A stretch of DNA of 64,000 nt from NCBI GenBank assembly GCA_902778175.1, contig CACYWT010000004.1:62001-126000 (forward strand). The letters run 5' to 3'. Below the pieces are notes generated by a model. It had not been told where the DNA came from and did no database searches. It saw nothing but the letters and a program-made list of their open reading frames with translations. Shown here one piece after another: positions 1,579 to 19,794 of this stretch. This DNA is from an uncultured Ruminococcus sp. (GTDB lineage: Bacteria; Bacillota; Clostridia; Oscillospirales; Acutalibacteraceae). Numbering within the stretch: position 1 is the stretch's first letter; every line of letters starts with the position of its first letter. A program made the translations under genes and the position numbers.

Positions 1579-1594
1579 TTTATTTATTGATTAT

Positions 1595-1806: not shown

Positions 1807-1811
1807 TTAAA

Positions 1812-2258: not shown

Positions 2259-2288
2259 ATAAACGCCTCCTACTTGCATTTTTACACA

Positions 2289-2317: not shown

Positions 2318-2342
2318 TATTCAGAATACTTAACACCATAGT

Positions 2343-4131: not shown

Positions 4132-4141
4132 AGCTGCTACC

Positions 4142-5782: not shown

Positions 5783-5783
5783 T

Positions 5784-6411: not shown

Positions 6412-6421
6412 TTATCTTACC

Positions 6422-6862
6422 TCACTTTCTTATAACTCCATGTGTCCATGCTCCTGCGTATATACCAACCTCTCCATTCATATCAAGCAGTATATCCTCA
6501 ATCGCTTTCAGATACTTTTTGTACAAGCCCATCTGTAGTCCGATCAAGCTCTCACTTCCGTAAGTGTCGTACTTCTGGATAAGTTCAACAGCTACGCTCC
6601 ATTCGTTGTCTTCTACAACAATGTAGAACAGTTCATTTTCAAGCAACGCTCTTCTGCTGCCTGAGATCCATTTATCGACATAGACGAAGCTGCTAAACCT
6701 TGCTGTGAGTTTCTTTGCAAGCTCGTATTCAAATTCGCTCCTGTTAAAATAGCTTGCTATTTCATCATACTCGCCGTCTTCTGTAAGCTCGTCAATGAAT
6801 TCATTGTCTACATAGTACAAGCCCTCACACTTGCCTAATACGCATACATTACCTCTACCCAT
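6422..6862 (-). CDS. Hypothetical acidic phage protein
   Basis: A 146-residue protein from ATG 6862 (GAAAGG upstream; ATG 6868 is an alternative). Starts MGRGNVCVLGKCEGLYYVDNEFIDEL, then an acidic helical region and a SESLIGLQMGLYKKYLKAIEDILL stretch. Proteins of this appearance are found in Clostridia plasmids and phages without known function. Operon A member. Confidence 0.6.
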   Translation of the reverse strand: MGRGNVCVLGKCEGLYYVDNEFIDELTEDGEYDEIASYFNRSEFEYELAKKLTARFSSFVYVDKWISGSRRALLENELFYIVVEDNEWSVAVELIQKYDTYGSESLIGLQMGLYKKYLKAIEDILLDMNGEVGIYAGAWTHGVIRK

Positions 6863-6864
6863 AA

Positions 6865-7056
6865 TCAATCATCCTTTCCGATGTCTGAGAGCCATTTGTT
6901 CTTGGCTTCTACGCATTCATTATAGTTTCTTCTTACGCAGGTAAACAGTTTGCCGTCTGATGCACGATAATCATACTGTACAAGCGTCCTGCCACGGAAA
7001 TCCTCGTATTCTTCGTACTGCTCGCTACGAGGCTTCAAATCTCTCGGATCAAGCAT
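6865..7056 (-). CDS. Small hypothetical phage protein
   Basis: A 63-residue protein with AAGGAGGTGG ahead of ATG 7056. Contains YDYRASDGKLFTCVRRNYNECVEAKNKWL, a two-strand-plus-helix pattern also seen in the 5968-6411 and 8017-8199 proteins, where a substrate-like DGK..T segment is followed by a helix. Function unknown. Confidence 0.6.
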   Translation of the reverse strand: MLDPRDLKPRSEQYEEYEDFRGRTLVQYDYRASDGKLFTCVRRNYNECVEAKNKWLSDIGKDD

Positions 7057-7089
7057 TTCGTTCCCACCTCCTTCCGATGCCGGATTTTA

Positions 7090-7284
7090 CTAAAGCGTGT
7101 AGTAGTTTTCTCCGATTCTCTTCGCCATTGCTGTGCCGAGCTTGTGAATACGCTCTACGATGGCATCCTTTTCATCTTCGCTGAGATAATCATATTCGGA
7201 ATCTTCGAGCTTGTAGTAAGCACAAGCAAGTCTATCCATAACAATCTCTTTTGCGATAAGATTCAGCTTGCTTTTAGGCATCAT
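7090..7284 (-). CDS. Small hypothetical helical protein
   Basis: A 64-residue protein with AAAGGAGG ahead of ATG 7284. Almost entirely helical (NLIAKEIVMDRLACAYYKLEDS...EDEKDAIVERIHKLGTAMAKRIGE). No family recognised; a two-helix hairpin is likely. Confidence 0.6.
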   Translation of the reverse strand: MMPKSKLNLIAKEIVMDRLACAYYKLEDSEYDYLSEDEKDAIVERIHKLGTAMAKRIGENYYTL

Positions 7285-7288
7285 ATCT

Positions 7289-7708
7289 TTACGCCTCCTT
7301 TCCGCTGTAGGCTTTCGGATTGTAGTCAGCCCATACGCCGGACAGGTTCAGGTATATGTACCATCTGTCTTCATCGACTTGTTCAACTCCCCATCCATAG
7401 CATCCATACAGCTTTCTGAGTGCTTTGTTGTCAGCTCCGTACACCTGCCATCCGTCTATATCTTTGAAGCATCCGTTTACGCAGCTTTCCATCACGGTTT
7501 CCATAAGCCAATCGTACAGCAGCTTGCTGTCTGCAACAGCTCTTGCGAGTCTTCTGATAGCCGTCTTCCATTTCTTGCAGCTCGTCATAAGGTCGATGGA
7601 TATTTTCCATCCGTCATCTATCATCACAGGCTTTTCGGACGGTTCCTGAACGGCTTCGAGCCATTTTGCGTAATCGTCCAAGTTCTTGAAGACCATAAGC
7701 TCTTTCAT
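7289..7708 (-). CDS. Hypothetical tryptophan-rich phage protein
   Basis: A 139-residue protein starting MKELMVFKNLDDYAKWLEAVQEPSEK, with AGGAG ahead of ATG 7708. Rich in Trp and Asp; ends VDEDRWYIYLNLSGVWADYNPKAYSGKEA. Not assigned. It lies five bases upstream of the next gene in operon A. Confidence 0.6.
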   Translation of the reverse strand: MKELMVFKNLDDYAKWLEAVQEPSEKPVMIDDGWKISIDLMTSCKKWKTAIRRLARAVADSKLLYDWLMETVMESCVNGCFKDIDGWQVYGADNKALRKLYGCYGWGVEQVDEDRWYIYLNLSGVWADYNPKAYSGKEA

Positions 7709-7720
7709 TGCTGTCTCCTC

Positions 7721-7954
7721 CTATCTTTCCAAATAGTGCAGGTAGTTCATATCATCCCACCTTGCACCATATACAGCTTCGTAGCTGTCAAAATCATCAT
7801 ACTCAATTTCTGCGTATGTATCAGGAAGACCGTATTCTGCATCATCGTCGCAGAAGACATCAGCGTTTTCTAACATTGCGTCGTAGGCTTCCTCGCTTAC
7901 AGTTCCTTCGTTAAACGCCTTAAAAGCTCTTCTTAAATATTCCTGTCTTTTCAT
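7721..7954 (-). CDS. Small very acidic protein
   Basis: A 77-residue protein with AGGAG ahead of ATG 7954. It starts basic (MKRQEYLRRAFKAFNEG) and then becomes strongly acidic (DVFCDDDAEYGLPDTYAEIEYDDFDSYEAVYG). Charge distribution of this kind is seen in DNA-mimic inhibitors, but there is no homology evidence. Confidence 0.6.
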   Translation of the reverse strand: MKRQEYLRRAFKAFNEGTVSEEAYDAMLENADVFCDDDAEYGLPDTYAEIEYDDFDSYEAVYGARWDDMNYLHYLER

Positions 7955-8016
7955 CGTGATTCTCCTTTCTGCCGCCCGATGAAGGGCGGCTATCGGTTAT
8001 GTACTTTTTTCGTTAA

Positions 8017-8199
8017 TCAGAAGATGCACTCGTAGATGCCTTTGATTACGAAACCCTGCTTTTCAAGTTCCTCCTTTTTTGCCTCGACTTTTTCTTTGCT
8101 TGTGGACTCGTAGATGTCGGTAAACTTTACACCTTTCTTTGAAACCTTTCCGGTTTCCCACTCTACCATCCATCCACTTTTTGTCGGAAGATTAAGCAT
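8017..8199 (-). CDS. Small hypothetical protein
   Basis: A 60-residue protein with GAGGTGAG ahead of ATG 8199; its start abuts the upstream gene's stop. Sequence pattern GWMVEWETGKVSKKGVKFTDIYESTSKEKVEAKKEELEKQGFVIKGIYECIF reads as a small alpha/beta fold: two strands, helix, strand. No family recognised. Confidence 0.6.
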   Translation of the reverse strand: MLNLPTKSGWMVEWETGKVSKKGVKFTDIYESTSKEKVEAKKEELEKQGFVIKGIYECIF

Positions 8200-8643
8200 T
8201 CAACTCACCTCCTCGTCTATCAGGTCAAACAGCCTTGCCTTCAGTCGGATGATCTGTTCTTCTGCCGCTTTCAGCTTCGATTCTGTTTCTCTGACAATTT
8301 TCTGAAGCTCGATCGTTTCAGCTTCGGTGTTGTGTGCAAGCTGTCTTGCCATTTCCAACTGGCGTTTGAGCTGCTCGTTCTCAACTACAGCCTTTTCTGC
8401 CTCTGAGCGAGCTCTTTCGGTTTCAGCACCCTCGTAATCGGCGGCTCTTCTGAATTCTTCTGCTTTCTTCTCTGCACTTTCAGCTCTCTGCTTCATTGAG
8501 CATCCGAAGTCGTTGTCGATGTTCTGTTCGGCTATCTCGAAGCATCCTTCAAACGCTGTTCCGATGTAGCTGTTTTCTCCAAGACCTTCAACGATTTTTC
8601 TGATCTGTTCGAGTGCCTTGCGTTCCTGCTCTTTCGTTGTCAT
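8200..8643 (-). CDS. Coiled-coil phage protein
   Basis: A 147-residue protein with GAGGAGG ahead of ATG 8643. Residues about 45-140 are a long Glu/Arg/Ala-rich coiled coil, preceded by a small N-terminal segment with EGLGENSYIGTAFEGCFEIAEQNIDNDFG. This organisation is common in Clostridia phages as a hypothetical protein. Likely an oligomeric scaffold or partner of other operon A products. Confidence 0.65.
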   Translation of the reverse strand: MTTKEQERKALEQIRKIVEGLGENSYIGTAFEGCFEIAEQNIDNDFGCSMKQRAESAEKKAEEFRRAADYEGAETERARSEAEKAVVENEQLKRQLEMARQLAHNTEAETIELQKIVRETESKLKAAEEQIIRLKARLFDLIDEEVS

Positions 8644-8734
8644 AACGATTACCTCCTCGTTTTTATTTCAGCTCCTCTTTCGGGGATGTGGCAGCGGCTT
8701 TTGTTTTAAGTCCTACCGCCAGTGGACTTTGCTT

Positions 8735-9010
8735 TCACCTGTTATCGTCTCCGTCTATTTCGTAGCAGGTGATTACTGCGTGGTTTGCAAGAACAAACAT
8801 TATGTTCGAGATCGTCTGGTTTTCGCTGTGCCTGTAGATGTCATCGGCTATGAAGTAGATGTTTTCGGTGCTCGGGTAAAGTCTTCCAACCCAATCAAGC
8901 ATGTGTTCGTAGTCTTCGTTATCTCCTGCTGTGTAGAGGTTGTTTTCGATGCAAACCTTCCTTACGCTATCTGCTGACCATCTTTTGAACTCTTCGATTT
9001 TTGGTAACAT
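8735..9010 (-). CDS. Hypothetical phage protein, second gene of operon A
   Basis: A 91-residue protein from ATG 9010 (AAAAGG nine bases upstream; ATG 9019 is an alternative). Mostly helical with NIMFVLANHAVITCYEIDGDDNR at the C-terminus. It is immediately downstream of an operator palindrome (9031-9044), matching the arrangement in operon B. About 90 bases without a gene separate it from the next gene. Confidence 0.6.
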   Translation of the reverse strand: MLPKIEEFKRWSADSVRKVCIENNLYTAGDNEDYEHMLDWVGRLYPSTENIYFIADDIYRHSENQTISNIMFVLANHAVITCYEIDGDDNR

Positions 9011-9030
9011 ATTGACCATCCTTTTTTTAC

Positions 9031-9044
9031 TTACCGTTTGGTAA
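9031..9044. promoter_or_regulatory. Repressor operator copy inside operon A
   Basis: TTACCGTTTGGTAA, identical to 1565-1578. It sits between the first gene's stop (9062) and the second gene's ribosome site. Confidence 0.7.
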
Positions 9045-9061
9045 TTGTGAGGTAAATTTTT

Positions 9062-9280
9062 TTACCTTACTTCATCGTATCTTTTTCCTAATGACTGTGC
9101 AACCGTCCTGATGTTCATGTTGTCGATGTTCTCGGCTTCTCCGATCTCACCCTCGTGTTTGAAGAATACAACTGTGTTGCTCTTCTTTATCCACATGATT
9201 GTGCTACAGGATTCGATCATCTTTCTGACTTCCATTGTGTTTGCCATCAGGTTTCTGTACAACTTGTGTATCTCTGTCAT
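9062..9280 (-). CDS. Small hypothetical protein, first gene of operon A
   Basis: A 72-residue protein with CGGAGG ahead of ATG 9280. It contains SCSTIMWIKKSNTVVFFKHEGEIG, likely a beta hairpin, and a C-terminal helix. Operators lie on both sides of the gene. No family recognised. Confidence 0.6.
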   Translation of the reverse strand: MTEIHKLYRNLMANTMEVRKMIESCSTIMWIKKSNTVVFFKHEGEIGEAENIDNMNIRTVAQSLGKRYDEVR

Positions 9281-9299
9281 TTTCGTTTCCTCCGTTTCC

Positions 9300-9313
9300 T
9301 TACCATTTGGTAA
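9300..9313. promoter_or_regulatory. Repressor operator at the operon A leader
   Basis: TTACCATTTGGTAA, downstream of the promoter and adjoining the ribosome site of the first gene. Its spacing to the promoter operator (35 bases start to start) is close to that in operon B (33 bases). Confidence 0.7.
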
Positions 9314-9331
9314 GTTGTTTTTGATGATTTA

Positions 9332-9360
9332 ATCTTACCACATGGTAATTCGTTTTGCAA
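9332..9360 (-). promoter_or_regulatory. Repressor-controlled promoter of operon A
   Basis: Minus strand TTGCAA (9360-9355), 17-base spacer, TAAGAT (9337-9332). The palindrome TTACCACATGGTAA (9335-9348) overlaps -10 and spacer. It should drive the gene string from 9280 leftward, off in the lysogen if the repressor binds here. Confidence 0.7.
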
Positions 9361-9409
9361 GCGTTTTTGACAAGTTTTTTGAAAAATTTTTTGGAATTTC
9401 TATTTTTGT
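9347..9409. repeat. Duplicated promoter-upstream segment, copy 2
   Basis: Nearly identical to 1610-1672 over about 60 bases, covering the -35 and the region upstream of the operon A promoter. Confidence 0.75.
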
Positions 9410-9717
9410 TTATATATCTATATATACTATATAATATTCTTTTATTTTCTTTTATATAGCCTGAGATTTTTTTTGGAAAATCCGCAACCTGTCGTGCGGA
9501 CAAAATGCGTGACATTTTACGGACTGTTGCTGCTTAAAATCGCTTATTTTGCTCTGAAAATCGGCTTTGTGCAGTTTGTATATCGTTTAAACGCTTGGAA
9601 ATTCGTTGTATTGCGTTTTTGGGTGGGGGTATGTAAGTATATTAAAGTTTCTTAAAAGCTTCTGGGGGCTCTATTTGTCAAATGTTATATCGTTTGTTTG
9701 TGCAATATACATAAACG
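9410..9717. other. Non-coding AT-rich gap between operon A promoter and lysis genes
   Basis: About 300 bases with no convincing gene. It holds an A/T-rich run, a 35-base segment (9434-9468, ending in ATAGCCTGAGATT) that recurs at 23684-23713, and a hairpin (TCCGCA...TGCGGA, near 9480-9499) followed by a GCGTGACA motif that also recurs in the 23.7-24.1 kb gap. Confidence 0.5.
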
Positions 9718-9762
9718 AAAAACCCCCGAACCACAAGATGAAATCCTGTGATCCGAGGGATT
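9718..9762 (-). terminator. Terminator of the late/lysis operon
   Basis: On the minus strand a long stem (CCCTCGGATCACAGGA / TCTTGTGGTTCGGGGG) followed by TTTTTCG, just after the endolysin stop. It marks the 3' end of the late transcript. Confidence 0.85.
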
Positions 9763-9775
9763 GATTTTCTCGATA

Positions 9776-11350
9776 TTACTTCATAAGCTGATTGACTTTG
9801 CTCTGAACCTCAGAGTAATTGTAACCTGCATCTGTAAGTTTTTTTCTTCTTTCATCGCCGTTGCCCCATTTGCCCTGTATCACTTCACGAGCGATGGTGT
9901 CAACGGATTTTCTGCCGGACATAAGAGCGTTAACGAGAAGCTGCACAGCGTTATAGTCATATCCTGCCGAGGTCAGCTTTTTCTTTCTCTCGTCACCTGA
10001 ACCCCATTTACCTGCTATGACCTCACGAGCTATCTCTTCTGTGGATTTGAGCTGTTTCTTTGATCCGAGAAGTTTTTCATTTACTTTGTTCTGCACAGCA
10101 GTATAATCATAACCTGCATTTTTCAGTCTGCTCTTACGGTCGTCGCCAGAACCCCACTTGCCTGCGATAACTTCGTTTGCGAGTTCATCAACGGTCTTGC
10201 TGTTCTTCTTGGTCGATGTCGAGGTGGATGTAGTAGAACTTTTCCAATTCGGACGGAAGAAAGCGTAAACGCTACTGTCATTCAGGTATCTTGTCTTACG
10301 CTTAAATGTAGAGGTTTCAGCCCAGTTATCTCCGCTACCTTCTACATTTCCTTCAAGGGTGATTATAGTGTTTCCGTCAACCTTTTCTACGATACCTACA
10401 TGGCTCGCAGAGTAATCGTCAATCGGAGACAAGCTACTGTACCTGAACATAATCAGGTCGCCTGCCTGTGGAGCTTTGCTGCCTTTGACGAAGAAGGTGC
10501 CATACTTTCCATCGCCGTATCTTGCTTCGTCAGAAGCAAAGGAATGTACTCCATCTGTGTACTTGCCAATGAAACCGCAATCTTTCATTATTGCAGAAAC
10601 GGCAAACGCACACCAATCTAAGATAGTATCAAGACCGAGCTTTGTCTTGCATACATAATAGCCGTTCTTTCCGATGTACTCAGCAGCTTTTTTGAGGAAC
10701 TTATCTCTGTCAGCAAGAACATTCACGGGAACTGTTGACGATTTATTGGCAGATGTACTCTTGCTCTGAATATCAGCATAGCAATAATCGAGGTCGATTT
10801 CTCCTGCGATGCCGCTAATGCTTCCTGCTCTGCCGACATTGTACTGCCATATCATACAGTCGCAATACGGCTTTGAGCTTTGCCATTGAGCAAGCCAAAG
10901 ATTTACTTTGCTGATGATCTCTCCTTTGTACAGATAGTTTTCAAGCCAATTCGGATTGGTATAGATACCGGATTTGTAGCCTGCCTTTTCAATCGTTTCG
11001 ATGAATGCTTTGGCAACATCGGTGCAAGCTCTCTTTCCGGCAGCAGCACACGACGCTTCTTCCATATCAATAAAAATAGGAAGTTCAAAGCTCTTGCCTT
11101 TGATACATTCGAGGCAGTATTCAGCTTCTTTGACAGCTTGCTCCTTCGTTTTTGCGTAGGAGTAATGGTATGCTCCGACAGGAATACCGAGCTTTTTGAA
11201 GCCTGCGTAGTTTCTTTCAAAGTAGTTATCTTTCTGATTTGCTTCCCATCCAAAAGACGAACGGACGATTGCAAACTGAACCTGATTTTTGTCTATCTTG
11301 GAGAAATCAATATTTCCCTGACAATATGATACATCAATCCCTTTTTTCAT
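9776..11350 (-). CDS. Endolysin: GH25 muramidase + CHAP + three CW_7 repeats
   Basis: A 524-residue modular peptidoglycan hydrolase for host lysis. Residues 1-190 are a glycoside hydrolase 25 domain (start KGIDVSYCQG, catalytic DME at 95-97). Residues about 225-355 are a CHAP/NlpC-type amidase or endopeptidase, with the Cys in DWCAFAVS, the His in SHVGIVE and a downstream TLEGN. Residues about 390-523 are three CW_7 (Cpl-7) wall-binding repeats, each with the EVIxGKWGxGDxRxxxLxxAGYDY core. Two catalytic domains would cut glycan and peptide. There is no signal peptide, so export relies on the holin one base upstream. ATG 11350 follows AAGGAG. Confidence 0.92.
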   Translation of the reverse strand: MKKGIDVSYCQGNIDFSKIDKNQVQFAIVRSSFGWEANQKDNYFERNYAGFKKLGIPVGAYHYSYAKTKEQAVKEAEYCLECIKGKSFELPIFIDMEEASCAAAGKRACTDVAKAFIETIEKAGYKSGIYTNPNWLENYLYKGEIISKVNLWLAQWQSSKPYCDCMIWQYNVGRAGSISGIAGEIDLDYCYADIQSKSTSANKSSTVPVNVLADRDKFLKKAAEYIGKNGYYVCKTKLGLDTILDWCAFAVSAIMKDCGFIGKYTDGVHSFASDEARYGDGKYGTFFVKGSKAPQAGDLIMFRYSSLSPIDDYSASHVGIVEKVDGNTIITLEGNVEGSGDNWAETSTFKRKTRYLNDSSVYAFFRPNWKSSTTSTSTSTKKNSKTVDELANEVIAGKWGSGDDRKSRLKNAGYDYTAVQNKVNEKLLGSKKQLKSTEEIAREVIAGKWGSGDERKKKLTSAGYDYNAVQLLVNALMSGRKSVDTIAREVIQGKWGNGDERRKKLTDAGYNYSEVQSKVNQLMK

Positions 11351-11556
11351 TATCTGTCATCTCCTTCCTTAACTTCCGGCAGACCTGCAAGGCTTGTAAG
11401 GATACTGCAAACTGCCGCTACAGCTGCGACAGACAGCATATTGATCCAATCGACTTCATTTGCGGCTACACCTATCGAAATAGTTGCTACTGCCGTCTGT
11501 GCAAAGGTCTTCAACGCCCTTATTCCTGCCGCTTTGAGCCATTCCTTGTTAATCAT
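11350..11556 (-). CDS. Holin (r1t-like)
   Basis: A 68-residue membrane protein from ATG 11556 (AAGGAG eight bases upstream). The N-terminal INKEWLKAAGIRALKTFAQTAVATI and the second hydrophobic segment VDWINMLSVAAVAAVCSILTSLAGLPEV match the r1t-type phage holin family: two membrane segments and a charged C-terminus. It forms the pore that releases the endolysin, whose ATG overlaps its stop. Confidence 0.85.
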   Translation of the reverse strand: MINKEWLKAAGIRALKTFAQTAVATISIGVAANEVDWINMLSVAAVAAVCSILTSLAGLPEVKEGDDR

Positions 11557-11875
11557 TTTTGCCACTCCTTTCGAGTTTCTCTATCCTGCTTTCGTGTCCG
11601 TCAATCCTATGATGGGACTGCTTCGCAGACTCTTCTACAGCTGTGAGCCTTGACACAACTTCTATGTGCTGCTCGTCCTGTTTTTCCTGCTTACGCTTGA
11701 TGTCATCAACACCGGATTTGATGTAGCCTATTTCGGTAAGCATTATGCCGTCCTTTTTGCCCTCGGTGGTATTGTCACTCTTGTCGTTCCTTTTGAATGC
11801 AAGGTAGCCAAAAATGATAGCACAGACCGTTCCGAATACACCGAGGACGGTAGCTATCATATCAATATCGTTCAT
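11549..11875 (-). CDS. XhlA-like membrane-anchored coiled-coil protein
   Basis: A 108-residue protein. Residues 3-27 form a membrane segment (IDMIATVLGVFGTVCAIIFGYLAF), followed by a long charged coiled coil (IGYIKSGVDDIKRKQEKQDEQHIEVVSRLTAVEESAKQSHHRIDGHESRIEKLE). The layout resembles the PBSX XhlA haemolysin-like partner of holins, though with the membrane segment at the N- rather than C-terminus. Gene order before holin and endolysin supports a lysis-accessory role. Confidence 0.65.
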   Translation of the reverse strand: MNDIDMIATVLGVFGTVCAIIFGYLAFKRNDKSDNTTEGKKDGIMLTEIGYIKSGVDDIKRKQEKQDEQHIEVVSRLTAVEESAKQSHHRIDGHESRIEKLERSGKND

Positions 11876-12077
11876 CGTCATCACTCCCTATAAGTGGTCT
11901 GTTTGCGTACTCAATAAGATCAAGCTCGCTGTCTGCCTTTTGACATAGCAGACGGAGATCCCCTCGGACTTCATCTGCTATTTTTGCCTGTTCAATAATC
12001 ATCGTTTGCTTGCGGATAATATCAGCCTGTAACTGAGTCACACTGCAAAGACGATCTATTATTTCAAGCATTGTCAT
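11862..12077 (-). CDS. Small hypothetical late protein
   Basis: A 71-residue helical protein (MLEIIDRLCSVTQLQADIIRKQTMIIEQAKIADEVRGDL...). Such short helical proteins with CSVTQLQADIIRKQ sit between tail and lysis genes in several Clostridia prophages; function unknown. ATG 12077 overlaps the XkdX-like gene's end. Confidence 0.6.
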   Translation of the reverse strand: MTMLEIIDRLCSVTQLQADIIRKQTMIIEQAKIADEVRGDLRLLCQKADSELDLIEYANRPLIGSDDDERY

Positions 12078-12207
12078 ATGGTTCGCCTACAATGGTTTCG
12101 TACTCTTCAGGAGTAATCCACTCGTATTCTACAGCTTTGTGAACACGGCTTTTCCCCCAAATATGATTATCATACAGCCTCTTTACATACTCATAACGCT
12201 TGCTCAT
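12064..12207 (-). CDS. xkdX: XkdX-family protein (47 aa)
   Basis: A 47-residue protein, MSKRYEYVKRLYDNHIWGKSRV...EWITPEEYETIVGEPY. The YVKxxYD..IW...RV..AV...WIT.EEYE.I.G..Y pattern is that of XkdX from the defective phage PBSX, a short protein found between tail-fibre and lysis genes in many Firmicutes phages; its function is not known. ATG overlaps the reverse transcriptase stop by four bases; GGAGGTGATGCAG provides the ribosome site. Confidence 0.85.
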   Translation of the reverse strand: MSKRYEYVKRLYDNHIWGKSRVHKAVEYEWITPEEYETIVGEPYDNA

Positions 12208-12416
12208 TCTGCATCACCTCCACTTACATCAAACGGAGCATCGTCTTCAGGAAGATCATCCTGTTCGAGATCAACGCCGAGGCACATTGCCATAAAAGCA
12301 TTGTCACCGTTTATCATTTCGATCCGCTGCCTCATTTCTGTATTTTCAGCCTTCAACCTTTCGTTTTCAGCTTCAAGTTCACGCAGTCTGCGGTTTTTGT
12401 TGATATGCTCTGTCAT
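12204..12416 (-). CDS. Possible internally started coiled-coil protein (70 aa)
   Basis: Inside the 3' end of the reverse transcriptase frame, ATG 12416 is preceded by AAGGAGG at the ideal distance of eight bases. The product would be an acidic leucine-rich coiled coil (RLRELEAENERLKAENTEMRQRIEM) with an Asp-rich tail. Either a formerly separate phage gene has become fused to the reverse transcriptase, or both the fusion and the short form are made. It overlaps the XkdX-like start. Confidence 0.5.
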   Translation of the reverse strand: MTEHINKNRRLRELEAENERLKAENTEMRQRIEMINGDNAFMAMCLGVDLEQDDLPEDDAPFDVSGGDAE

Positions 12417-13532
12417 TGCATTTTTCCTCCTTGACTTTCTTTTGCACTTGTAGATTGGTTTTGTTCCGAACAGGCTTGCAAAGAATGAATCCATTTTCTT
12501 TATCTGCTTTGTGCAGTCGCAGATAAGCATCGTAGAGATAAAACATTCATACTTGTTCATTATGGTATCCATATCAGTCAGACCTGCATCGAGATCACGC
12601 TTTTGTTTTCGGAGAACTCTTCGCTCTTTCTCGAACTTCTGACGCATAGGTATCACAAGAACCTTTCCTGTCTTTGTGAGGATAAACTTCTTTTTCAGGA
12701 AGTAAAAGCCTTTACTCAGCTTATTGTTGCCACCTTTATCGGTGCAGATAAGACCTCTTTCGGCAAGATATGATTTGACGGTTTCTTCAGCTCTACGAAC
12801 TGCGTCTTTATCACGAGCTATGATAACAATATCGTCCATAGTCCTGTGAACAGTAAAAAGGTCCTTGTCGCCAGTGAGCTTATGGTCGAGATCATCGAGT
12901 ATAGCAAGCTGAATAAGCTGTGATACCGGAGAGCCGAGACCTGTACCTCTTTTACCGAATGGATCAGCAGCTATGGTGTCAGGGTCTCTGCTGTCAATAA
13001 AACTATTGAAAACATCAACGAGAAAGGGAACTATCTTTTCGTCTTTGCAATATCTTTCAATGACATCTATTGCGACGCTGTTTGGCGTTGATGGGAAATA
13101 GCTTTTGATGTCAAGATGCTTTGCAATACCATTGTTATCGCCGTATTTTCGGCAATATTTTTCAAGTGCTGCCGTCATACGCAGTATCGCAAACTCTGTT
13201 CCTTTTTCTTTCTGACAAGCTCCGCTGTCGTATATAAGCGATGTTGTCATATCATCGTAAACTCCGTTGTAGCACATATCATTCTGCCATACACGATCAC
13301 AGTACAAAGGCGGCAAGATAAGTCTTTCTTTCGGTTCGTATATCTTGAAGGGTACACCGTGACCTGTCCTGTGCCTGCCGGAAGTGATAGAATATTTCAG
13401 CTTTTCACACCGTTCAAGTCGTTCTATCTTCCAAAGCATTACTGCTTGTTTATGACCTACACCTTTTGCTGTTCGTTTTGACGCTTTACATAACTCATTC
13501 AGACTGATTGCTTTGTCAAATTGTTCACCCAT
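12204..13532 (-). CDS. DGR reverse transcriptase with C-terminal coiled-coil extension
   Basis: A 442-residue protein from ATG 13532. It is the DGR reverse transcriptase that copies the TR RNA with adenine errors. Visible motifs: HLDIKSYFPS (about 139-148, first catalytic Asp), GLGSPVSQ (about 198-205), which is the DGR-specific G-x-x-x-S-Q form instead of the QG-x-x-x-SP of retroviruses and group II introns, and TMDDIVII (about 231-238, catalytic YxDD equivalent). A thumb region rich in Lys/Arg follows. Residues 373-442 are an acidic coiled coil that looks like a separate small gene joined in frame (see 12204-12416). Upstream residues in the open frame overlap the TR spacer RNA and are unlikely to be translated. 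Confidence 0.93.
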   Translation of the reverse strand: MGEQFDKAISLNELCKASKRTAKGVGHKQAVMLWKIERLERCEKLKYSITSGRHRTGHGVPFKIYEPKERLILPPLYCDRVWQNDMCYNGVYDDMTTSLIYDSGACQKEKGTEFAILRMTAALEKYCRKYGDNNGIAKHLDIKSYFPSTPNSVAIDVIERYCKDEKIVPFLVDVFNSFIDSRDPDTIAADPFGKRGTGLGSPVSQLIQLAILDDLDHKLTGDKDLFTVHRTMDDIVIIARDKDAVRRAEETVKSYLAERGLICTDKGGNNKLSKGFYFLKKKFILTKTGKVLVIPMRQKFEKERRVLRKQKRDLDAGLTDMDTIMNKYECFISTMLICDCTKQIKKMDSFFASLFGTKPIYKCKRKSRRKNAMTEHINKNRRLRELEAENERLKAENTEMRQRIEMINGDNAFMAMCLGVDLEQDDLPEDDAPFDVSGGDAE

Positions 13533-13730
13533 AATTACCGTAAAACAACGCTCCAAAAAGGAACACCGCCGCCGTTTATAGCAGAGACCTGAGTTTTTCT
13601 CAGCCTGCATCGTAGGTTACAAGGATTTTAGCACCATCACGGCTTCTTTTCGCCTTTTGGGACAGGAAGAAGGCTCCCTGCGTGAGTTGTACTGCTTTCG
13701 GCTTTCGCTTACTCGATCTCGCATACACAC

Positions 13731-13853
13731 GGTCGCAGACGACACCGTTCGTGTTGTTGGCGTTGTTGTTGTTCAACTCACCTGATGTATTCACGTTACG
13801 CACATTGTTCGCATTGGAAGGGTTGGCAGAACGCAGCCACCAGTTCCGAGCTG
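13731..13853 (-). repeat. DGR template repeat (TR)
   Basis: 123 bases aligned without gaps to the VR at 14407-14529. Twenty positions differ and in every one the TR base is adenine on the minus (RNA-sense) strand. Thirteen of the altered codons encode residues that vary and most are AAC or AAT, the codon type used by DGR templates for maximal diversification. It lies between avd and the reverse transcriptase; about 200 bases of spacer follow to the RT start, as needed for the structured DGR RNA. Confidence 0.97.
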
Positions 13854-13865
13854 AATAGCCTCTCC

Positions 13866-14312
13866 CTATTGATTTTTGTAAATCTTATCATGCATCCTTA
13901 TCCATCCATAAAGAGTATCGTAGAAAACATTGTAAAGCCTCGCCCAATTTTCAAAGTGATCTGCTGATAATTGCAGTCTTCTTTGCTGATCGTTTATTGA
14001 ACGAGCTATTGTTTTCGCAACGGCTCTCGATTTATAAACAGCTTTAACTCTCTCTTTGAAAAGCTCAGGAATATCCATTGGCAAATCATTTGCATAGGTT
14101 ATGAGATCGAGTAACTGATCGCATTTTTCAAGTATGCGTGTGCCGTATTCCCATCTGCTTCTCTTTGGCATTAGCTCTCTTTTTGTCTTCTTGCAGTTTT
14201 CGCCAATAACGGTGATAGTCTTTGTTTGCAGACGATAAACTTCATCAGTCATTTGTTGAGCTTGGATAAGGACTTTCAATCCCTCTTTGTATTCGTTGTT
14301 TTTCCTTGCCAT
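13866..14312 (-). CDS. avd: Avd, DGR accessory variability determinant
   Basis: A 148-residue helical basic protein (MARKNNEYKEGLKVLIQAQQMTDEVYRLQTKTITV...). It has the size, position and helical composition of Avd, which forms a pentameric four-helix-bundle barrel, binds the reverse transcriptase and TR RNA and is required for mutagenic cDNA synthesis. Characteristic are the N-terminal helix rich in Gln/Leu and the late RSINDQQRRLQLSADHFENWARLYN stretch. GGAGG precedes ATG 14312. It starts just after the hairpin that follows the variable gene. Confidence 0.85.
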   Translation of the reverse strand: MARKNNEYKEGLKVLIQAQQMTDEVYRLQTKTITVIGENCKKTKRELMPKRSRWEYGTRILEKCDQLLDLITYANDLPMDIPELFKERVKAVYKSRAVAKTIARSINDQQRRLQLSADHFENWARLYNVFYDTLYGWIRMHDKIYKNQ

Positions 14313-14324
14313 AGTATTATCCTC

Positions 14325-14356
14325 CCACAGATGCGGCAGATTGCCGCCATCTGTGG
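14325..14356 (-). promoter_or_regulatory. Strong hairpin/cruciform downstream of VR
   Basis: Inverted repeat CCACAGATG / CATCTGTGG with a further CGGCA / TGCCG inner stem and a three-base loop (one bulged base). No U-tract follows, so it is not a simple terminator. In the Bordetella phage DGR a hairpin just after the VR is needed for efficient homing; this one begins about 50 bases after the VR and could play that part. It also directly precedes the avd ribosome site. Confidence 0.65.
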
Positions 14357-14374
14357 TATTGTTGATTTTCGTTA

Positions 14375-15895
14375 TTATTCATCGGATTTGCGAGATTTTA
14401 TAAGCAGGCCGCAGACGACACCGTTCGTGCTGCCGGCGTTGATGTCGTACAACTCACCAGATGCAGACACGCAACGCACATAGTGCGCAAAGGAAGGGCG
14501 GGCAGAACGCAGCCACCAGTACCGAGCTGTGCCGTTCTGATATTTGATTTTATCGCTGTTGCTTGTCCCTGAGAAGATTTCAAGCAGTTCTCCTTCTTTT
14601 CCGCTGATGTTGTTACCACCGTAAACCTCTGTCTTTGACATCAGGAATACCTTGTCATTCAGAGTTTCTGTGGTGTCGTCTCCTGACACTCTATCAGGAG
14701 ATGGTATCTCGACTACGATAGTAGCTTCTCCGATATTATCAGCAAGATCAGGATCAAGACCGTGAAGGAATCCTGCCATCTGTCGTGCTGCTGCCGAAGG
14801 AGGCATATCAAAAATATCAGATGGAGTCCACCAATAAGAGAATGTGGTATCTCCACTTTTAACTGCCTTACCTGTACTGTTGAGCCACTTGCGGTAACAG
14901 GAGTGAGCATAGCGGTTTGAGCCATAAATCTGTCTTTCGGAAAAATTCACCTTTGTCAGATTCTCGACTTCGACAATGTACTGCTTATCTCTTGCAGCAA
15001 CAGTTCCGAGATCTGTGCAGACGGTTTCGCCATCCCATTCAGATACAACGATATTGCTTTCGATAACGGTTCTCTGTGGTTGAATGCCATAAGTCGTGAT
15101 TTTTCCGGCTGTAATTTCAGCTTTTGTATGTGCGTTCTGAGACCACTCGCCGACTTTGCTGTGCCTGATACCGCCTCCGGCAGGAATAGCCTGTGTAGTC
15201 GTAAACATATATGTTCCGTTCTGAAGCACACCACCGCCGTTATCAGCGTGATTGAGGGTGAACTTATACTTTCCGGCAGGAAGCTCGGCTAAGGCATAGA
15301 TCATTAGCTGTGGAGCCGAGAACGGAATTGTGCCGTAAGCTATGACATCACGAGAAATAAACATAATACTCTGTTCATTGTCAGCACAGTTTACATCGTG
15401 ATCTGCAACATCGAGAATGATTCTTGATGCTGTCTCGGTGATAACCACCTTGTCTCCTTCGGCAGGTGTTCCTGTCACGGTAATGCCATAAGCGGCAAGA
15501 GAGATCGCTTCGTTATCCTCTTTGTGCCATACAGCACCGTCATATACAGCTTCATACACTCCGCTGTGTGCTGTGCCTACTGCGGCAATAAAGGCATCTT
15601 CGTCAACTGTTGCAGCTGTGATACCTGTGCTGTCGCCAACGCTGATAGCGAGAGCTGTCTCTCTTTCAGCAACGAACGAGTCTTCGACAGGTATCTTTCG
15701 ATGAAGACCGAGACGGACAAGGTTTTTGACCTCGCCAAAACTGTTTGCACTTACTTCGCCACTTCCTGCGGCAATAGTGGAAAGTATTGAGCTTACTGTC
15801 TTCAATTCAGACGAAAGCCCGTCTTTGAGACCGCCTATGTTTTCAATAAAGGCTTCCTCAGAGAGAAGGTGCAGGGGATTTGTTTGTTCGCTCAT
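14375..15895 (-). CDS. DGR variable protein, putative tail receptor-binding protein
   Basis: A 506-residue structural protein, the last large tail gene. The N-terminal 300 residues are beta-rich and hold repeated Ala/Gly/Thr segments. The C-terminal 200 residues resemble the DUF6273/C-type-lectin-like (FGE-type) folds used by DGR targets: NRYAHSCYRKWLNS, YWWTPSDIF, VFLMSKTEVYG and the core RYWWLRSARPS...GELYDINAGSTNGVVCGLL. The VR covers residues about 456-497. Template Asn codons have become Tyr, Arg, Phe, His, Cys, Ser, Asp, Ile or Gly, as expected for a diversified ligand-binding surface. Position after the BppU-like gene suggests host-receptor or mucosal-glycan binding. AAGGAGG precedes ATG 15895. 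Confidence 0.9.
   Translation of the reverse strand: MSEQTNPLHLLSEEAFIENIGGLKDGLSSELKTVSSILSTIAAGSGEVSANSFGEVKNLVRLGLHRKIPVEDSFVAERETALAISVGDSTGITAATVDEDAFIAAVGTAHSGVYEAVYDGAVWHKEDNEAISLAAYGITVTGTPAEGDKVVITETASRIILDVADHDVNCADNEQSIMFISRDVIAYGTIPFSAPQLMIYALAELPAGKYKFTLNHADNGGGVLQNGTYMFTTTQAIPAGGGIRHSKVGEWSQNAHTKAEITAGKITTYGIQPQRTVIESNIVVSEWDGETVCTDLGTVAARDKQYIVEVENLTKVNFSERQIYGSNRYAHSCYRKWLNSTGKAVKSGDTTFSYWWTPSDIFDMPPSAAARQMAGFLHGLDPDLADNIGEATIVVEIPSPDRVSGDDTTETLNDKVFLMSKTEVYGGNNISGKEGELLEIFSGTSNSDKIKYQNGTARYWWLRSARPSFAHYVRCVSASGELYDINAGSTNGVVCGLLIKSRKSDE
14407..14529 (-). repeat. DGR variable repeat (VR)
   Basis: The diversified copy of the TR at 13731-13853, lying at the 3' end of the variable-protein gene. 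The G/C-rich 3' end (ACGAACGGTGTCGTCTGCG) is shared with the TR and is the probable initiation-of-mutagenic-homing site; the next base differs (A in TR, G in VR). Confidence 0.97.
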
Positions 15896-15907: not shown

Positions 15908-16831
15908 TTAAATGGTGTTATATATAATGCACGGCTTGCCGTTCATTACCCTGAATTTGCAGAGATAGTCGGTGTCGTTATCTGTGTCTTTGAATACAAT
16001 TCCGTCTATCTCTTCTCCAACCGCAGATGCAGCTGCGGTTGCTGCTGCCGCAGCAGTATTCGCACTTTGCGTAGCAGCATTTGCGTTTTCTGTAGCGGTA
16101 TTGGCATTTTGCGTAGCGGTTGTAGCGGAAGATGCAGCACTATTCGCACTACTTGCAGCTGTCGTTGCGCTCTGAGCTGCACTCGTGGCTGACGAGGCAG
16201 CGGAATTTGCACTTTCAGCCGCCGAATTTGCACTCTGAGAAGCGTTGATTGCTGAGGTTGTGGCAGAGTTGGCGTTTTGAGTAGCAGTTTCAGCTTTCTG
16301 CTTTGCCGTGTTTGCGTTTTGTGCTGCTGTCGTAGCAGAGGATGCTGCCGAGTTTGCGCTATTGGCTGCTGCTGTTGCGTTTTGAGCAGCTGTATTTGCA
16401 GCAGAGGTTGCACTTTCTGCATCGGCAGTAGCTTCTGTAAGAACGCCAAATTCATTCGAGCTTGTTGTCTGATCTGCCGATAGCGGAGCTTTTTCAACCT
16501 GAATAAAAAAAGTCGCTGAAGATAATACCTTTTCTCCATTACGGATAGATATATCAGCTTCAACAAGTCCCTTTACTGCAAGCACCTGATCTGTAAGCTC
16601 AACAGAAATTGTATTGTCGTTATTGATTACTCCGTTGTTAAGGCAGCTTTTGCCGTCAGGCTTCAAGCACCTGAAAACTGCTACATCTCCGCTTGCAGGA
16701 GCAAGCTGCGTTGTACCGTTAATCAGCGTAATACGGAGATACCGTGTCTTCTGATCGCCCTGTTTTGCATCAATATACTTTTTCTGCTGCCTGCAAGACA
16801 CATCGAGGGATATAGGCAATTCGTATTGCAT
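15908..16831 (-). CDS. BppU-like baseplate/tail-fibre connector protein
   Basis: A 307-residue protein. Residues 1-115 match the BppU N-terminal domain of lactococcal-type siphophage baseplates (LPISLDVSCRQQKKYIDAKQGDQKTRYLRITLINGTTQ, then VAVFRCLKPDGKS and LVEADISI). Residues about 130-265 are a low-complexity Ala/Ser/Asn/Thr repeat in short units such as SANSAASSATTAAQNA, predicted to form a long trimeric helical shaft. The short C-terminus (IDGIVFKDTDNDTDYLCKFRVMNGKPCIIYN) ends the fibre. It probably attaches the DGR-variable protein to the tail tip. Confidence 0.8.
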   Translation of the reverse strand: MQYELPISLDVSCRQQKKYIDAKQGDQKTRYLRITLINGTTQLAPASGDVAVFRCLKPDGKSCLNNGVINNDNTISVELTDQVLAVKGLVEADISIRNGEKVLSSATFFIQVEKAPLSADQTTSSNEFGVLTEATADAESATSAANTAAQNATAAANSANSAASSATTAAQNANTAKQKAETATQNANSATTSAINASQSANSAAESANSAASSATSAAQSATTAASSANSAASSATTATQNANTATENANAATQSANTAAAAATAAASAVGEEIDGIVFKDTDNDTDYLCKFRVMNGKPCIIYNTI

Positions 16832-16834: not shown

Positions 16835-17056
16835 TTACTCCTCCTTCTGTTCGGAATCATCCTGCTGAGAGTTCATAGTGTTTATATCAGCAAGAAGTTC
16901 AATGTTTTTCTGATTTCTGACTTCTGCAAGTATTTCGCATATCATACCTTCGACAAGATAGGCAGGGAGTTTTGTGTCATTCAGAACACTATTCACTGAC
17001 GCTTTCAGCGAATTTTTTGCAGACTCCATAATTACGCTAAGAGGCATTTTACTCAT
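16835..17056 (-). CDS. Small conserved tail-region protein
   Basis: A 73-residue protein: MSKMPLSVIMESAKNSLKASVNSVLNDTKLPAYLVEGMICEILAEVRNQKNIELLADIN and an acidic tail. The LPAYLVEGMICEILAEVR motif recurs in short proteins beside Gram-positive phage tail-fibre genes; function unknown. Its ATG overlaps the stop of the tail endopeptidase gene. Confidence 0.65.
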   Translation of the reverse strand: MSKMPLSVIMESAKNSLKASVNSVLNDTKLPAYLVEGMICEILAEVRNQKNIELLADINTMNSQQDDSEQKEE

Positions 17057-19794
17057 TTCTTTTTCACCTCATTTATCGGTATTTTTATTTTCGACCGTGC
17101 AACTTCTTCCATTTTTTTACGATGAACTCCGCTCACGATGTCAAAGAAAGATTTTTTTTCTTCCTTAGAATAAGGATCAGACCATGGTGCAGTTTTCTTC
17201 TTCTGGGAAGATGGCTTTGCCGCAGATCGTGCATAGAGTTCCTGAATTGCTTTTACAAGATAAGGTATCAGCTTGATGTAATCAATAGATAGCTTTCCGT
17301 CATTAGTAGATTCAACAACTACATCAGGCAAAACACTTTGCACTTGTTGAGCTATGAAGCCTATATCATTGTGTTCTTCGTTTTCTATCCAGTCAAACGA
17401 CATTGCTTCCAAGCTGTTTATGACATCAACAGCACGAACGTCAGAAGGTGCGATATTTGTCTTCAGTCTTGCGTCACAAGTATTTACGATACTGTGGTTA
17501 TTCATATCGAGGTTGGTGTGACAACTTACAACACCATAATCGGAATACAAATCAATATCAGAATTAACCTTTACCCTTGCAGATGGACCATACAGTCCAA
17601 CCTCTTTTGTATCGGAATACCATCCTCCTGCACCGCTTGACCAGTTGACGCTTCTGACATATTCATTTATTCTAAGATTTCCCCAAACATAAGTAGGGCA
17701 GGAAAAATGAATACCTCTTTTTTCTTCTGTATCATCAGCATAGTAAATCATCTCTACTGAATAGTCGCTATCTGTTTTATTTTCCTGATGTGCCCAACAC
17801 ATATACTCAGCACCGTAGTTAAGGTCAAATACAAGACCTTTAAAATTCGGCTTTCCAGAAAAATTGTTGGTTCCTATTTTTCCGACATAAGTTCCTGAGT
17901 GGTAGAAATGAGAGCCACTATAATTAAACTTTGAAACAAGCTGCTGTGTCGATACGTTTGCACTATCGTATATTCTAAGCTCTCCACTTTCAAATTGGAT
18001 GTATTTACTCACATTGTTCCAGGCGATTTTTACAGCGTCAGACTTTAAAGATAGAACCGTACCTGAGGAGTTTTTATTTGCTATTAAAGAGATGTTGTCT
18101 GCGTTCTGTTCTATCTTACTTTGCAAAGTAGAGAGTGTCGTTTGAAGCGTCCAAGATGTTCCGTTTGACTTCCAGAGCTTTCCGGTTGACTGGTCGAGAT
18201 AATACTTATTGTTATAGTTCACAGGGGGATATATCGTAGCAGACGGTCTACCGTTGCTGTAAATCGAGATAGTATAGTCGCTTGTATCATACCTTGATAC
18301 AGTAGAGTATATCGAATCAGCAGTCTGCTGTATCAGCGTTCGCATATTGCTTTCAGAAGTGGCTATTTCACTCCTTACTTGACCGTCAGCTGCTGTAAAC
18401 TCTTGCGTTAGAGTAGTTGACGCTTCGCTCACAGCAGAATTAACAGTTTCGTTTATCTCAGAAGTAACCTCAGATTTGTACGACTGAGAGATAGAACCTG
18501 ACTTTATGCTTCCTGCCTCTATCAGCTCACCTCTTATCACCATTGCGTTAATAACCTCTGTGATAAAGTGATCGTCGTAAGTGATAGCTGTTGTATATGG
18601 ACCGTTTATTCCTGTCGATGATTTACCTATGCCTTTGTAATTTATGATCCATACGACCTCTGCTTCGTCAGGGTCGGGATCGTCCATCATATAGAGGTTT
18701 GAACCGTCGCTATACGGATAACTTCCGAAAGCACCTGTAAGCATTGCGGTAGCAATAAGTATTCTCGACTCGTAATCGGTCTGCATACGAACTACGCTGT
18801 TATCAATATACGATATTGCACTGTCTATCGAGGAGCTTATTGTCTGTGGAACACAAGAGAGCGTAACCTTGTTATTTCGAGGATCATCTGGATATTCAAC
18901 ATACTCAACAATTTGATGAACAATACGAATACCTCTGTCAATATCTATCAGCGTGACTTTTTTGTGCAGCGAAAAATCGAGGAAGGAATATTCTGCACTT
19001 TGCTTTGCGAGATCAACTACATCGCACTCGTATGATCTGACAGGTGCAGATACACTTTCGAGCTTTTTTACAGCATCTTCATACAAGTTCTCAGGAATGG
19101 TATATCTTTCGTCAGACCAATACGCACAAATCGTTTTGTTAGCGTACTGCTTGTTTTCTACATAAGTAAGACCGTATCTGCTTCCGTTTATAACAGCTTC
19201 TTCCATCGTCATACCGTCTTTGCCGTAAGCATACAACCTTGTGGCAAACTCTGTGGTATCTCCTTTGAAAGACAGCTTTTTCAAGTTCAGCTCACTCGTC
19301 AAGTATTCTCCGGTGACAGGCATATCTGTCTGCGAATAAACGATAAGTCTCTTCTCTTTGATTTTCCAAACAAAGAATACTCCATACACAGACATACAGC
19401 GATAGAGAATATCGAAATCTGTACAGAAATCAAACTCTATCGTCCGTCTAATAGAGGAAACACCTGCTCCTTCTACAGTCCATCCTGCCGGAAGATGAGA
19501 TTGCAAAACTTGGGTCAAAAACTGTGTCTCGCTTCTGAAATCCTTATAAAAAGTGCCTTTCAGAAAATCAAAGTTAAGTTCACAGTCTATCTTGTCGTCA
19601 TCTATCTTTTTTACGAGCCACTCATTATCGTCAGAAACAATCTTTGCTTCTTCATATATCAGCTTGTACTGATCGAGAGTAACATCAATAGTGAACGACA
19701 TTTCATCTCTGCCGTCCTGCTTGTGTTTGATGCACAAATCGTCATAGTCTGTTATAGGCTGAGGAATACCGTATTTATCAGTTATAATAAGCAT
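17053..19794 (-). CDS. Tail endopeptidase/tail-spike protein with S74 chaperone domain
   Basis: A 913-residue tail protein. The N-terminal 380 residues match the Tal/prophage endopeptidase-tail family that plugs the tail tip after Dit (start MLIITDKYGIPQPITDYDDL). A coiled-coil and beta-helical middle follows. Residues about 790-880 are a peptidase S74 intramolecular chaperone (CDARLKTNIAPSDVRAVDVINSLEAMSFDW...IGFIAQQVQSVLPDVV...SIDYIKLIPYLVKAIQEL), which trimerises the fibre and then cuts itself off. The usual catalytic Ser of S-D-x-R-x-K is Cys here (TGT codon), so self-cleavage may be lost or Cys-based. A basic tail of about 50 residues follows. Confidence 0.88.
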   Translation of the reverse strand: MLIITDKYGIPQPITDYDDLCIKHKQDGRDEMSFTIDVTLDQYKLIYEEAKIVSDDNEWLVKKIDDDKIDCELNFDFLKGTFYKDFRSETQFLTQVLQSHLPAGWTVEGAGVSSIRRTIEFDFCTDFDILYRCMSVYGVFFVWKIKEKRLIVYSQTDMPVTGEYLTSELNLKKLSFKGDTTEFATRLYAYGKDGMTMEEAVINGSRYGLTYVENKQYANKTICAYWSDERYTIPENLYEDAVKKLESVSAPVRSYECDVVDLAKQSAEYSFLDFSLHKKVTLIDIDRGIRIVHQIVEYVEYPDDPRNNKVTLSCVPQTISSSIDSAISYIDNSVVRMQTDYESRILIATAMLTGAFGSYPYSDGSNLYMMDDPDPDEAEVVWIINYKGIGKSSTGINGPYTTAITYDDHFITEVINAMVIRGELIEAGSIKSGSISQSYKSEVTSEINETVNSAVSEASTTLTQEFTAADGQVRSEIATSESNMRTLIQQTADSIYSTVSRYDTSDYTISIYSNGRPSATIYPPVNYNNKYYLDQSTGKLWKSNGTSWTLQTTLSTLQSKIEQNADNISLIANKNSSGTVLSLKSDAVKIAWNNVSKYIQFESGELRIYDSANVSTQQLVSKFNYSGSHFYHSGTYVGKIGTNNFSGKPNFKGLVFDLNYGAEYMCWAHQENKTDSDYSVEMIYYADDTEEKRGIHFSCPTYVWGNLRINEYVRSVNWSSGAGGWYSDTKEVGLYGPSARVKVNSDIDLYSDYGVVSCHTNLDMNNHSIVNTCDARLKTNIAPSDVRAVDVINSLEAMSFDWIENEEHNDIGFIAQQVQSVLPDVVVESTNDGKLSIDYIKLIPYLVKAIQELYARSAAKPSSQKKKTAPWSDPYSKEEKKSFFDIVSGVHRKKMEEVARSKIKIPINEVKKK

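What the first reader, a model, noticed from the sequence alone, without database searches (positions are those of the whole stretch)
12204..15895. Complete diversity-generating retroelement retargeting a phage tail protein
Seen directly: two 123-bp repeats align without gaps and differ at 20 sites, all of them adenines in the template (13731-13853) and T, G or C in the variable copy (14407-14529). The altered codons change 14 residues at the C-terminus of a 506-residue tail protein. Avd and a reverse transcriptase with the DGR-specific GxxxSQ motif follow. Inference: the prophage diversifies its receptor-binding surface in a gut host.
Basis: partly seen in the sequence, partly recalled or inferred. 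Interest (0 to 1): 0.88.

Follow-up and report, generated by a model that had tools for sequence, protein, structure and literature searches.

The report
Prophage tail-protein diversifier with odd polymerase
A virus dormant in a bacterium carries a known kind of mutation machine that rewrites the end of one of its tail proteins; the machine looks complete and recently used, but its copying enzyme has a threonine where its relatives nearly always have a tyrosine.

Summary
On the minus strand, target gene (VR 14407-14529), avd, TR (13731-13853) and RT lie in BPP-1 order. TR and VR differ at 20 sites, all A in TR (35 A in 123 bases; p 6e-14). RT and Avd match phage DGR families, 14 of 15 first-round RT relatives carry their own TR/VR pair, and a hairpin follows VR. 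This is a DGR, a new member of a known kind: DUF6273-target DGRs in gut prophages are published.

Corrections: the 3'-most mismatch (codon 496) is almost certainly the fixed IMH*/IMH difference, leaving 19 mutagenic sites and 13 changed residues. The RT probably starts at 13532, and its frame runs on into a 70-residue small gene that lies in another frame in 8 of 8 relatives examined.

Of 198 alignable relatives 193 have Y, 4 F, 1 H, none T. Either a threonine-type DGR polymerase works, or this DGR was recently disabled; the clean TR/VR signature and ordinary RT divergence favour the former modestly. Activity is untested.

The parts
14375..15895 (-). DGR target gene, 506 aa; C-terminal DUF6273 domain (residues 319-493) carrying the VR
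   Evidence: Pfam PF19789 E 2.2e-20; phrog_19280 E 1.6e-26 over residues 186-497; homologues in 16 related loci aligned, 32-48% identity
14407..14529 (-). Variable repeat (VR)
   Evidence: only full copy besides TR in the host genome
14325..14356 (-). Hairpin (14 bp stem with one bulged base, 3-nt loop) 50 nt 3' of VR, in the place of the hairpin/cruciform needed for efficient retrohoming in BPP-1
   Evidence: DNA fold z -3.5, 0 of 200 shuffles as good; in 8 of 9 clade members folded the region after VR has z -2.5 or lower, L036 -1.0; in 7 other loci z runs from -0.4 to -2.4 (60 mononucleotide shuffles each; region shifted by 30 nt in L036 and L071)
13866..14312 (-). Avd accessory protein, 148 aa
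   Evidence: phrog_3206 'Avd protein of DGR' E 6.7e-6; no Pfam or NCBIfam hit
13731..13853 (-). Template repeat (TR), 3' end = IMH*
13613..13726 (-). TR-RT spacer RNA, resembles Rfam RT-2 (RF03077), below Rfam's cut-off
   Evidence: 26.1 bits against gathering 40, E 0.0025 in a 4-kb search; related loci L115 and L046 exceed the cut-off (2 of 16 loci searched)
12204..13532 (-). DGR-type reverse transcriptase, 442 aa from MGEQF; the ORF opens at 13610. Motif C is RTMDD (T at 257 in ORF numbering), motif 4 is GLGSPVSQ
   Evidence: phrog_1423 E 1.3e-44; best PDB sequence match 8ub7 reverse transcriptase E 1.5e-6; alignments
12204..12416 (-). 70-aa small ORF, coiled-coil-like by eye, in the RT frame, with its own AAGGAGG ribosome site; may also be made alone
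15908..16831 (-). BppU_N baseplate-type protein, likely carrier of the target protein
   Evidence: PF10651 E 2e-12; phrog_19280 joins it with the DUF6273 part

Best explanation
A complete diversity-generating retroelement in a tailed prophage. Shown by sequence: target, avd, TR, spacer and RT are in BPP-1 order, and VR differs from TR only at template A. Inferred from the BPP-1 mechanism: TR-spacer RNA is bound by RT and Avd and copied with errors at A, and the cDNA replaces VR up to the IMH and hairpin, so that 13 residues so far (any codon with an internal template A in principle) of a DUF6273 domain, C-type-lectin-like by published prediction, vary at the end of a protein probably attached to the baseplate. 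19 of the 20 differences are read as mutagenesis products; the 3'-most is the IMH*/IMH difference. It is more likely than not that the RT works with threonine in place of tyrosine in motif C. The confidence given is for DGR identity and design; present activity is about 0.5.
For: All 20 mismatches on template A, none at 88 non-A sites. 14 of 15 RT loci from other genomes of the family sample carry their own A-biased TR/VR pair, and 152 of 177 loci overall, window included (the finder accepts only pairs with at least 75% of mismatches on A). RT and Avd family matches. Hairpin. Spacer RNA resemblance. PHROG 19280 joins the BppU_N part and the DUF6273 part. 20 of 35 template A changed (0.57), within the range of 119 non-redundant pairs (median 0.49, range 0.17-0.79). 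The RT's path length from its fork (1.63) lies inside its sister group's range of 1.19-1.66, summed by me from the printed tree, so there is no general acceleration. D167, D259 and D260 are kept.
Against: Motif C lacks the tyrosine present in 193 of 198 relatives, and the RT departs from 4 of 23 columns that are at least 93% conserved, against a median of 0. No close relative of this DGR was found, so neither VR turnover nor selection on the RT could be measured. The Avd match is weak. The window RT is one of the four longest end branches, and its placement has modest support. The spacer fold is unremarkable alone (z -1.2), and the clade alignment gives almost no consensus structure. 25 of 177 loci, among them clade members L031 and L032, gave no TR/VR pair (some are cut by contig ends).
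Confidence: 0.85

Rival explanations
1. A DGR that worked until recently and was then disabled by the change in the RT active site. The A-only TR/VR signature is a relic.
For: Published precedent: DGRs with truncated or interrupted RTs but TR/VR differing only at A, read as very recent inactivation (PMC3521204, passages seen). Threonine at this place is seen in 0 of 198 relatives.
Against: The RT frame is open over 468 codons with the catalytic aspartates kept. The RT is not on an accelerated path. A tyrosine codon to ACT needs two base changes (codon read), not what a single recent hit would give. F and H occur in elements that also carry an A-biased TR/VR pair (L030 and L099-L101 with no other mismatch, L108 with 2).
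Confidence: 0.3
2. The target protein is not the host receptor-binding tip but an adhesin for mucus or other surfaces, diversified all the same.
For: DUF6273 also occurs in tentaclins and Hoc-like proteins; the target hits phrog_10993 'Hoc-like head decoration' over residues 319-493. PMC10743442 leaves both options open (abstract and passages).
Against: Only the DUF6273 part is shared with the Hoc-like family. The gene follows the Tal-like and BppU_N genes, and PHROG 19280 spans BppU_N and DUF6273 parts.
Confidence: 0.15
3. The TMDD codon is a sequencing or assembly error.
For: The genome is in 118 contigs, and no reads or sibling genome could be examined.
Against: Two base differences in one codon with the frame intact; neighbouring residues before motif C also differ from relatives.
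Confidence: 0.04
4. TR and VR are an ordinary duplication that drifted apart.
For: Two similar 123-bp segments 676 bp apart.
Against: 20 of 20 differences on template A, p 6e-14; RT and Avd lie beside them.
Confidence: 0.005

Closest known systems
Bordetella phage BPP-1 DGR (mtd-avd-TR-brt)
   Same: Gene order (recalled), VR at the 3' end of a tail gene, A-only TR/VR differences, IMH with fixed TR/VR mismatches, hairpin 3' of VR, RT related to the PDB 8ub7 reverse transcriptase (that 8ub7 is the BPP-1 complex is recalled). BPP-1 features from passages of PMC3240598 and PMC12875486.
   Different: RT motif C is TMDD, not YMDD; DUF6273 target, not Mtd; hairpin 50 nt from VR, whereas in BPP-1 it lies within the first 24 bp after VR; RT frame continues into a small gene.
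Faecalibacterium prophage DGRs with DUF6273 targets (Roos, Pioen, Lelie, CP11; PMC11792537, passages)
   Same: Prophage DGR, VR at the C-terminal end of DUF6273, proposed structural or adhesive role.
   Different: RTs of Roos, Pioen and Lelie only 24.6-26.5% identical to this one; Pioen's target, for one, has another N-terminal domain.
DGR locus of Ruminococcus bicirculans 80/3 chromosome (L114)
   Same: Target homologous over residues 30-494 of the window's (E 4e-65), RT 32% identical, TR/VR with 13 A changes and no others.
   Different: RT belongs to the other branch, without the DPFG insertion (seen in the near-identical L022), and keeps Y in motif C.
Viral contigs L029-L038 and L189-L197 (IMG/VR)
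   Same: RT clade with the DPFGxRG insertion (alignment of L029-L037), 36-43% identical in the best segment.
   Different: All with a readable motif C have Y or F there; the small gene after RT is in another frame in the 8 examined.

Membership tests
Diversity-generating retroelement (DGR) | TR/VR pair whose differences fall on template adenines | tested here: met
   20 of 20 mismatches on A, p 6e-14
Diversity-generating retroelement (DGR) | Nearby RT of the DGR clade with GxxxSQ in motif 4 | tested here: met
   LGSPVSQ; phrog_1423 E 1.3e-44; 14 of 15 first-round relatives have their own TR/VR
Diversity-generating retroelement (DGR) | Catalytic aspartates of RT | tested here: met
   D167, D259, D260 kept
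Diversity-generating retroelement (DGR) | Accessory protein (Avd type) | tested here: met
   phrog_3206 E 6.7e-6, weak but in the right place
Diversity-generating retroelement (DGR) | IMH/IMH* with fixed mismatch, and hairpin 3' of VR | tested here: met
   by comparison of sequences only
Diversity-generating retroelement (DGR) | Structured spacer RNA between TR and RT | tested here: inconclusive
   RT-2 match below Rfam cut-off; fold z -1.2; weak alignment consensus
Diversity-generating retroelement (DGR) | Mutagenic retrohoming observed | not testable with these tools
   needs reads or culture; no near-identical relative in the collections searched
Canonical YxDD/FxDD DGR reverse transcriptase | Tyrosine (or phenylalanine) at the first position of motif C | tested here: not met
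   TMDD; 198 alignable relatives: Y 193, F 4, H 1, T 0. PMC3521204 reports Y, with F in 14% (passage)
C-type-lectin-fold DGR target | C-type-lectin fold of the VR-bearing domain | not tested

The most novel reading that the evidence does not exclude
A working DGR whose reverse transcriptase uses TMDD in place of YMDD: the tyrosine next to the catalytic aspartates is not needed for DGR cDNA synthesis, and its loss, with the change of neighbouring residues, may set the enzyme's fidelity or processivity. The in-frame tail may be a working part of the RT.
Probability: 0.5. Interest if true: 0.55.

Novelty: new member of a known kind. Interest (0 to 1): 0.4.

Why it matters
As a DGR it adds one more tail-protein diversifier to a well-described kind. 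The part worth following is the natural TMDD reverse transcriptase. If it makes cDNA, it is a natural test of which motif C residues DGR mutagenesis needs; in the BPP-1 passages seen, the motif was only inactivated (SMAA). If it does not, it is a case of DGR loss so recent that TR and VR still bear no other mutation.

Tried and rejected
Ordinary duplication: rejected by the substitution pattern. Retron, group II intron or DRT: the RT gives weak hits to these (NCBIfam TIGR04416 43.5 bits against a cut-off of 300; PADLOC RT models up to 49.4 bits), below the phage RT PHROG (153.7 bits), and none explains TR/VR. A second target gene in the host genome: none beyond a 23-base chance-level match. 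Close relatives of the RT or target in viral contigs, and of the RT in genome contigs, by single protein: none; by VR pattern in viral contigs: none. Of the Tal relatives (14 loci) I examined four, plus L233 and L023: L218 and L219 share BppU_N and Tal, but no RT, Avd or target match lies in the DNA held; L221 has a distant RT (27%), a target match and a TR/VR pair. Perfect-stem hairpin scan: 55 of 152 loci against 1.6 expected by shuffling, but the window's own bulged hairpin and those of the clade were missed by that rule, so folding was used. attL/attR: no shared word longer than 13 bases between 53180-53420 and 1-12000, so the left prophage boundary is not fixed. A double frameshift as the source of the motif C change was considered and left as speculation. 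Caveat on the terminal-mismatch count: the ungapped repeat finder seems to have stopped early in a few loci (L036 and L071, for example), so some 'near-end' mismatches there are ordinary ones.
Full report
Observation. On the minus strand the window reads: Tal-like protein (17053-19794), BppU_N protein (15908-16831), a 506-residue protein (14375-15895), avd (13866-14312), TR (13731-13853), RT (ORF 12204-13610), a small phage gene (12064-12207, phrog_134), a weakly XhlA-like gene, a holin and an endolysin (9776-11350). The two 123-bp repeats align without gaps. All 20 differences are A in TR: 9 to T, 8 to G, 3 to C; 0 of 88 non-A sites differ; p = 6e-14.

What it is. The RT matches the phage RT family phrog_1423 (E 1.3e-44) and the gene before TR matches 'Avd protein of DGR' phrog_3206 (E 6.7e-6). 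The best solved-structure match of the RT by sequence is 8ub7 (E 1.5e-6). In a sample of 300 genomes of the host family, 13 including the window's own have a related RT. I scanned the 15 RT loci of the others, and 14 of 15 carry an A-biased TR/VR pair (the exception L007 lies on a 4.5-kb contig). With 80 loci from viral contigs (best 80 of 323 relatives), 80 from genome contigs (best 80 of 151) and one phage record, 152 of 177 loci, window included, show such a pair; the finder takes only pairs with at least 75% of mismatches on A, and 25 loci gave none. This is a DGR.

The target. Its residues 319-493 are DUF6273 (E 2.2e-20), and the VR lies at the end of that domain. PHROG 19280 (623 positions) covers the BppU_N neighbour with positions 1-221 and the target with positions 331-620, so in other phages the two parts are likely one protein. 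That makes a baseplate-attached position likely. Published work places VRs at the C-terminal end of DUF6273 in Faecalibacterium prophages (PMC11792537, passages) and finds a C-type-lectin-like fold for DUF6273 by prediction (PMC10743442, abstract and passages). The fold was not tested here. In one other genome among 64 of the same genus a homologue of the target was found (38% identity; 32% by tblastn). There it is followed after about 0.7 kb by a match to the CHAP part of the endolysin, with no RT or Avd match and no TR/VR pair on the 6.7-kb contig (L023), so the DGR looks like an optional module.

The last mismatch. In the window TR ends GCGACC and VR GCGGCC. Nine loci of the nearest clade have a TR/VR pair (L029, L030, L033-L038, L071). 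In seven of them the repeat ends the same way, with A in TR and G (4) or C (3) in VR one to four bases from the end; I dropped L036 and L071, where the ungapped repeat seems to stop early. Among 119 non-redundant pairs (one per 90% RT cluster) the last mismatch lies within 8 bases of the end in 104: A to C 73, A to G 20, A to T 10, C to T 1; in 9 it is further in, and in 6 there was none in the last 20 bases. Other A changes in the same pairs are G 750, T 568, C 345 (chi-square p 4e-30). So this site behaves as a fixed difference, not as a random product. It fits the BPP-1 IMH, whose mismatches with TR set the direction of transfer (PMC3240598, passage). Hence 19 mutagenic sites, 13 changed residues and one silent codon.

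Other parts. A hairpin (14 bp with one bulge) lies at 14325-14356, 50 nt 3' of VR; the region folds better than all 200 shuffles (z -3.5). In 8 of 9 clade members folded the region after VR has z -2.5 or lower, with hairpins of other sequence; L036 has -1.0, and 7 loci outside the clade range from -0.4 to -2.4. The TR-RT spacer matches Rfam RT-2 RNA at 26.1 bits, under its cut-off of 40. In 2 of 16 related loci (L115, L046) the same family passes the cut-off just ahead of the RT match; 14 of 16 do not reach it. The spacer alone does not fold unusually well (z -1.2), and the clade alignment yields little consensus.

RT boundaries. Several relatives begin at the residues matching MGEQF, so the RT probably starts at 13532. 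In 8 of 8 clade members examined (L029-L031, L033-L037), a small gene that looks coiled-coil-like by eye overlaps the RT end in another frame. In the window the similar segment (12204-12416) is in the RT frame and has its own AAGGAGG site. A similar in-frame tail is seen in L047, L048 and L109.

Motif C. The window has RTMDD. Among 174 relatives with residues there (176 loci, 2 with gaps) Y occurs in 169, F in 4, H in 1; after 24 more loci, 198 relatives: Y 193, F 4, H 1, T 0; counting one per 90% cluster, 163 clusters including the window: Y 157, F 2, H 1, T 1, gap 2. A survey of DGR RTs reports both aspartates always kept and the tyrosine replaced by phenylalanine in 14% (PMC3521204, passage). 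The threonine codon is ACT, two changes from a tyrosine codon. The window RT departs from 4 of 23 highly conserved columns (N129S, H177N, K246T, Y257T); three loci depart from 5, and the median is 0. In a 33-row tree it sits with the DPFG-insertion clade, as a long branch with modest support; its path from the fork (1.63) is within the range of its sister group (1.19-1.66, my sums from the printed tree). Thus the RT is divergent but does not seem to be decaying faster than its kin.

Reading. The cassette was used too recently for other mutations to build up: no non-A difference in 88 sites. Published recently inactivated DGRs look the same in TR/VR, so the signature alone cannot show present activity. 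I put about 0.5 on a working threonine enzyme, 0.3 on recent inactivation, and the rest on uncertainty that these data do not resolve. A paper search for TMDD, 'reverse transcriptase' and YXDD found 45 papers with two of the three terms; none of the 15 listed holds TMDD. Within that library and listing I know of no report.

Not tested: VR turnover, host name, gut origin, receptor role, expression.

Noticed in passing
36392-41087: Unusual gene cluster inside the prophage between packaging and replication genes: PLP-dependent decarboxylase-like, a protein like TET-associated or beta-glucosyl-HMC-alpha-glucosyltransferases, PylC-like ATP-grasp, ParB-like and UDP-galactopyranose mutase genes; possibly DNA hypermodification or surface sugar change.
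   Followed up: partly
L023 (G343 contig 121) 4168-6609: Same-genus homologue of the target protein upstream of an endolysin-like (CHAP part) match, with no DGR detected on the 6.7-kb contig.
   Followed up: partly
119 non-redundant TR/VR pairs from loci L002-L188 and the window: The 3'-most TR/VR mismatch, in 104 of 119 within 8 bases of the end, is mostly A in TR against C or G in VR (93 of 104), unlike the other A changes; it may be a general mark of IMH* in this RT group.
   Followed up: partly
51503-53299: Large serine integrase (phrog_95 E 2e-130) ends beside the queA gene, a likely insertion site; no attachment repeat longer than 13 bases found on the left.
   Followed up: partly
L115 3818-3979; L046 3828-3982: Rfam RT-2 RNA just ahead of DGR-type RTs, so this Rfam family may be a DGR spacer RNA.
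   Followed up: no
L114 6796-7155: A tmRNA gene lies downstream of the DGR in the Ruminococcus bicirculans locus, perhaps the prophage's insertion site.
   Followed up: no
2343-3107: Protein with a sub-threshold ASCH match that also hits the PADLOC candidate family PDC-M11B.
   Followed up: no
window versus L089, L109, L127 and L029-L038: The target is closest to targets of L089, L109 and L127, while the RT groups with L029-L038; RT and target may have been exchanged between phages.
   Followed up: no
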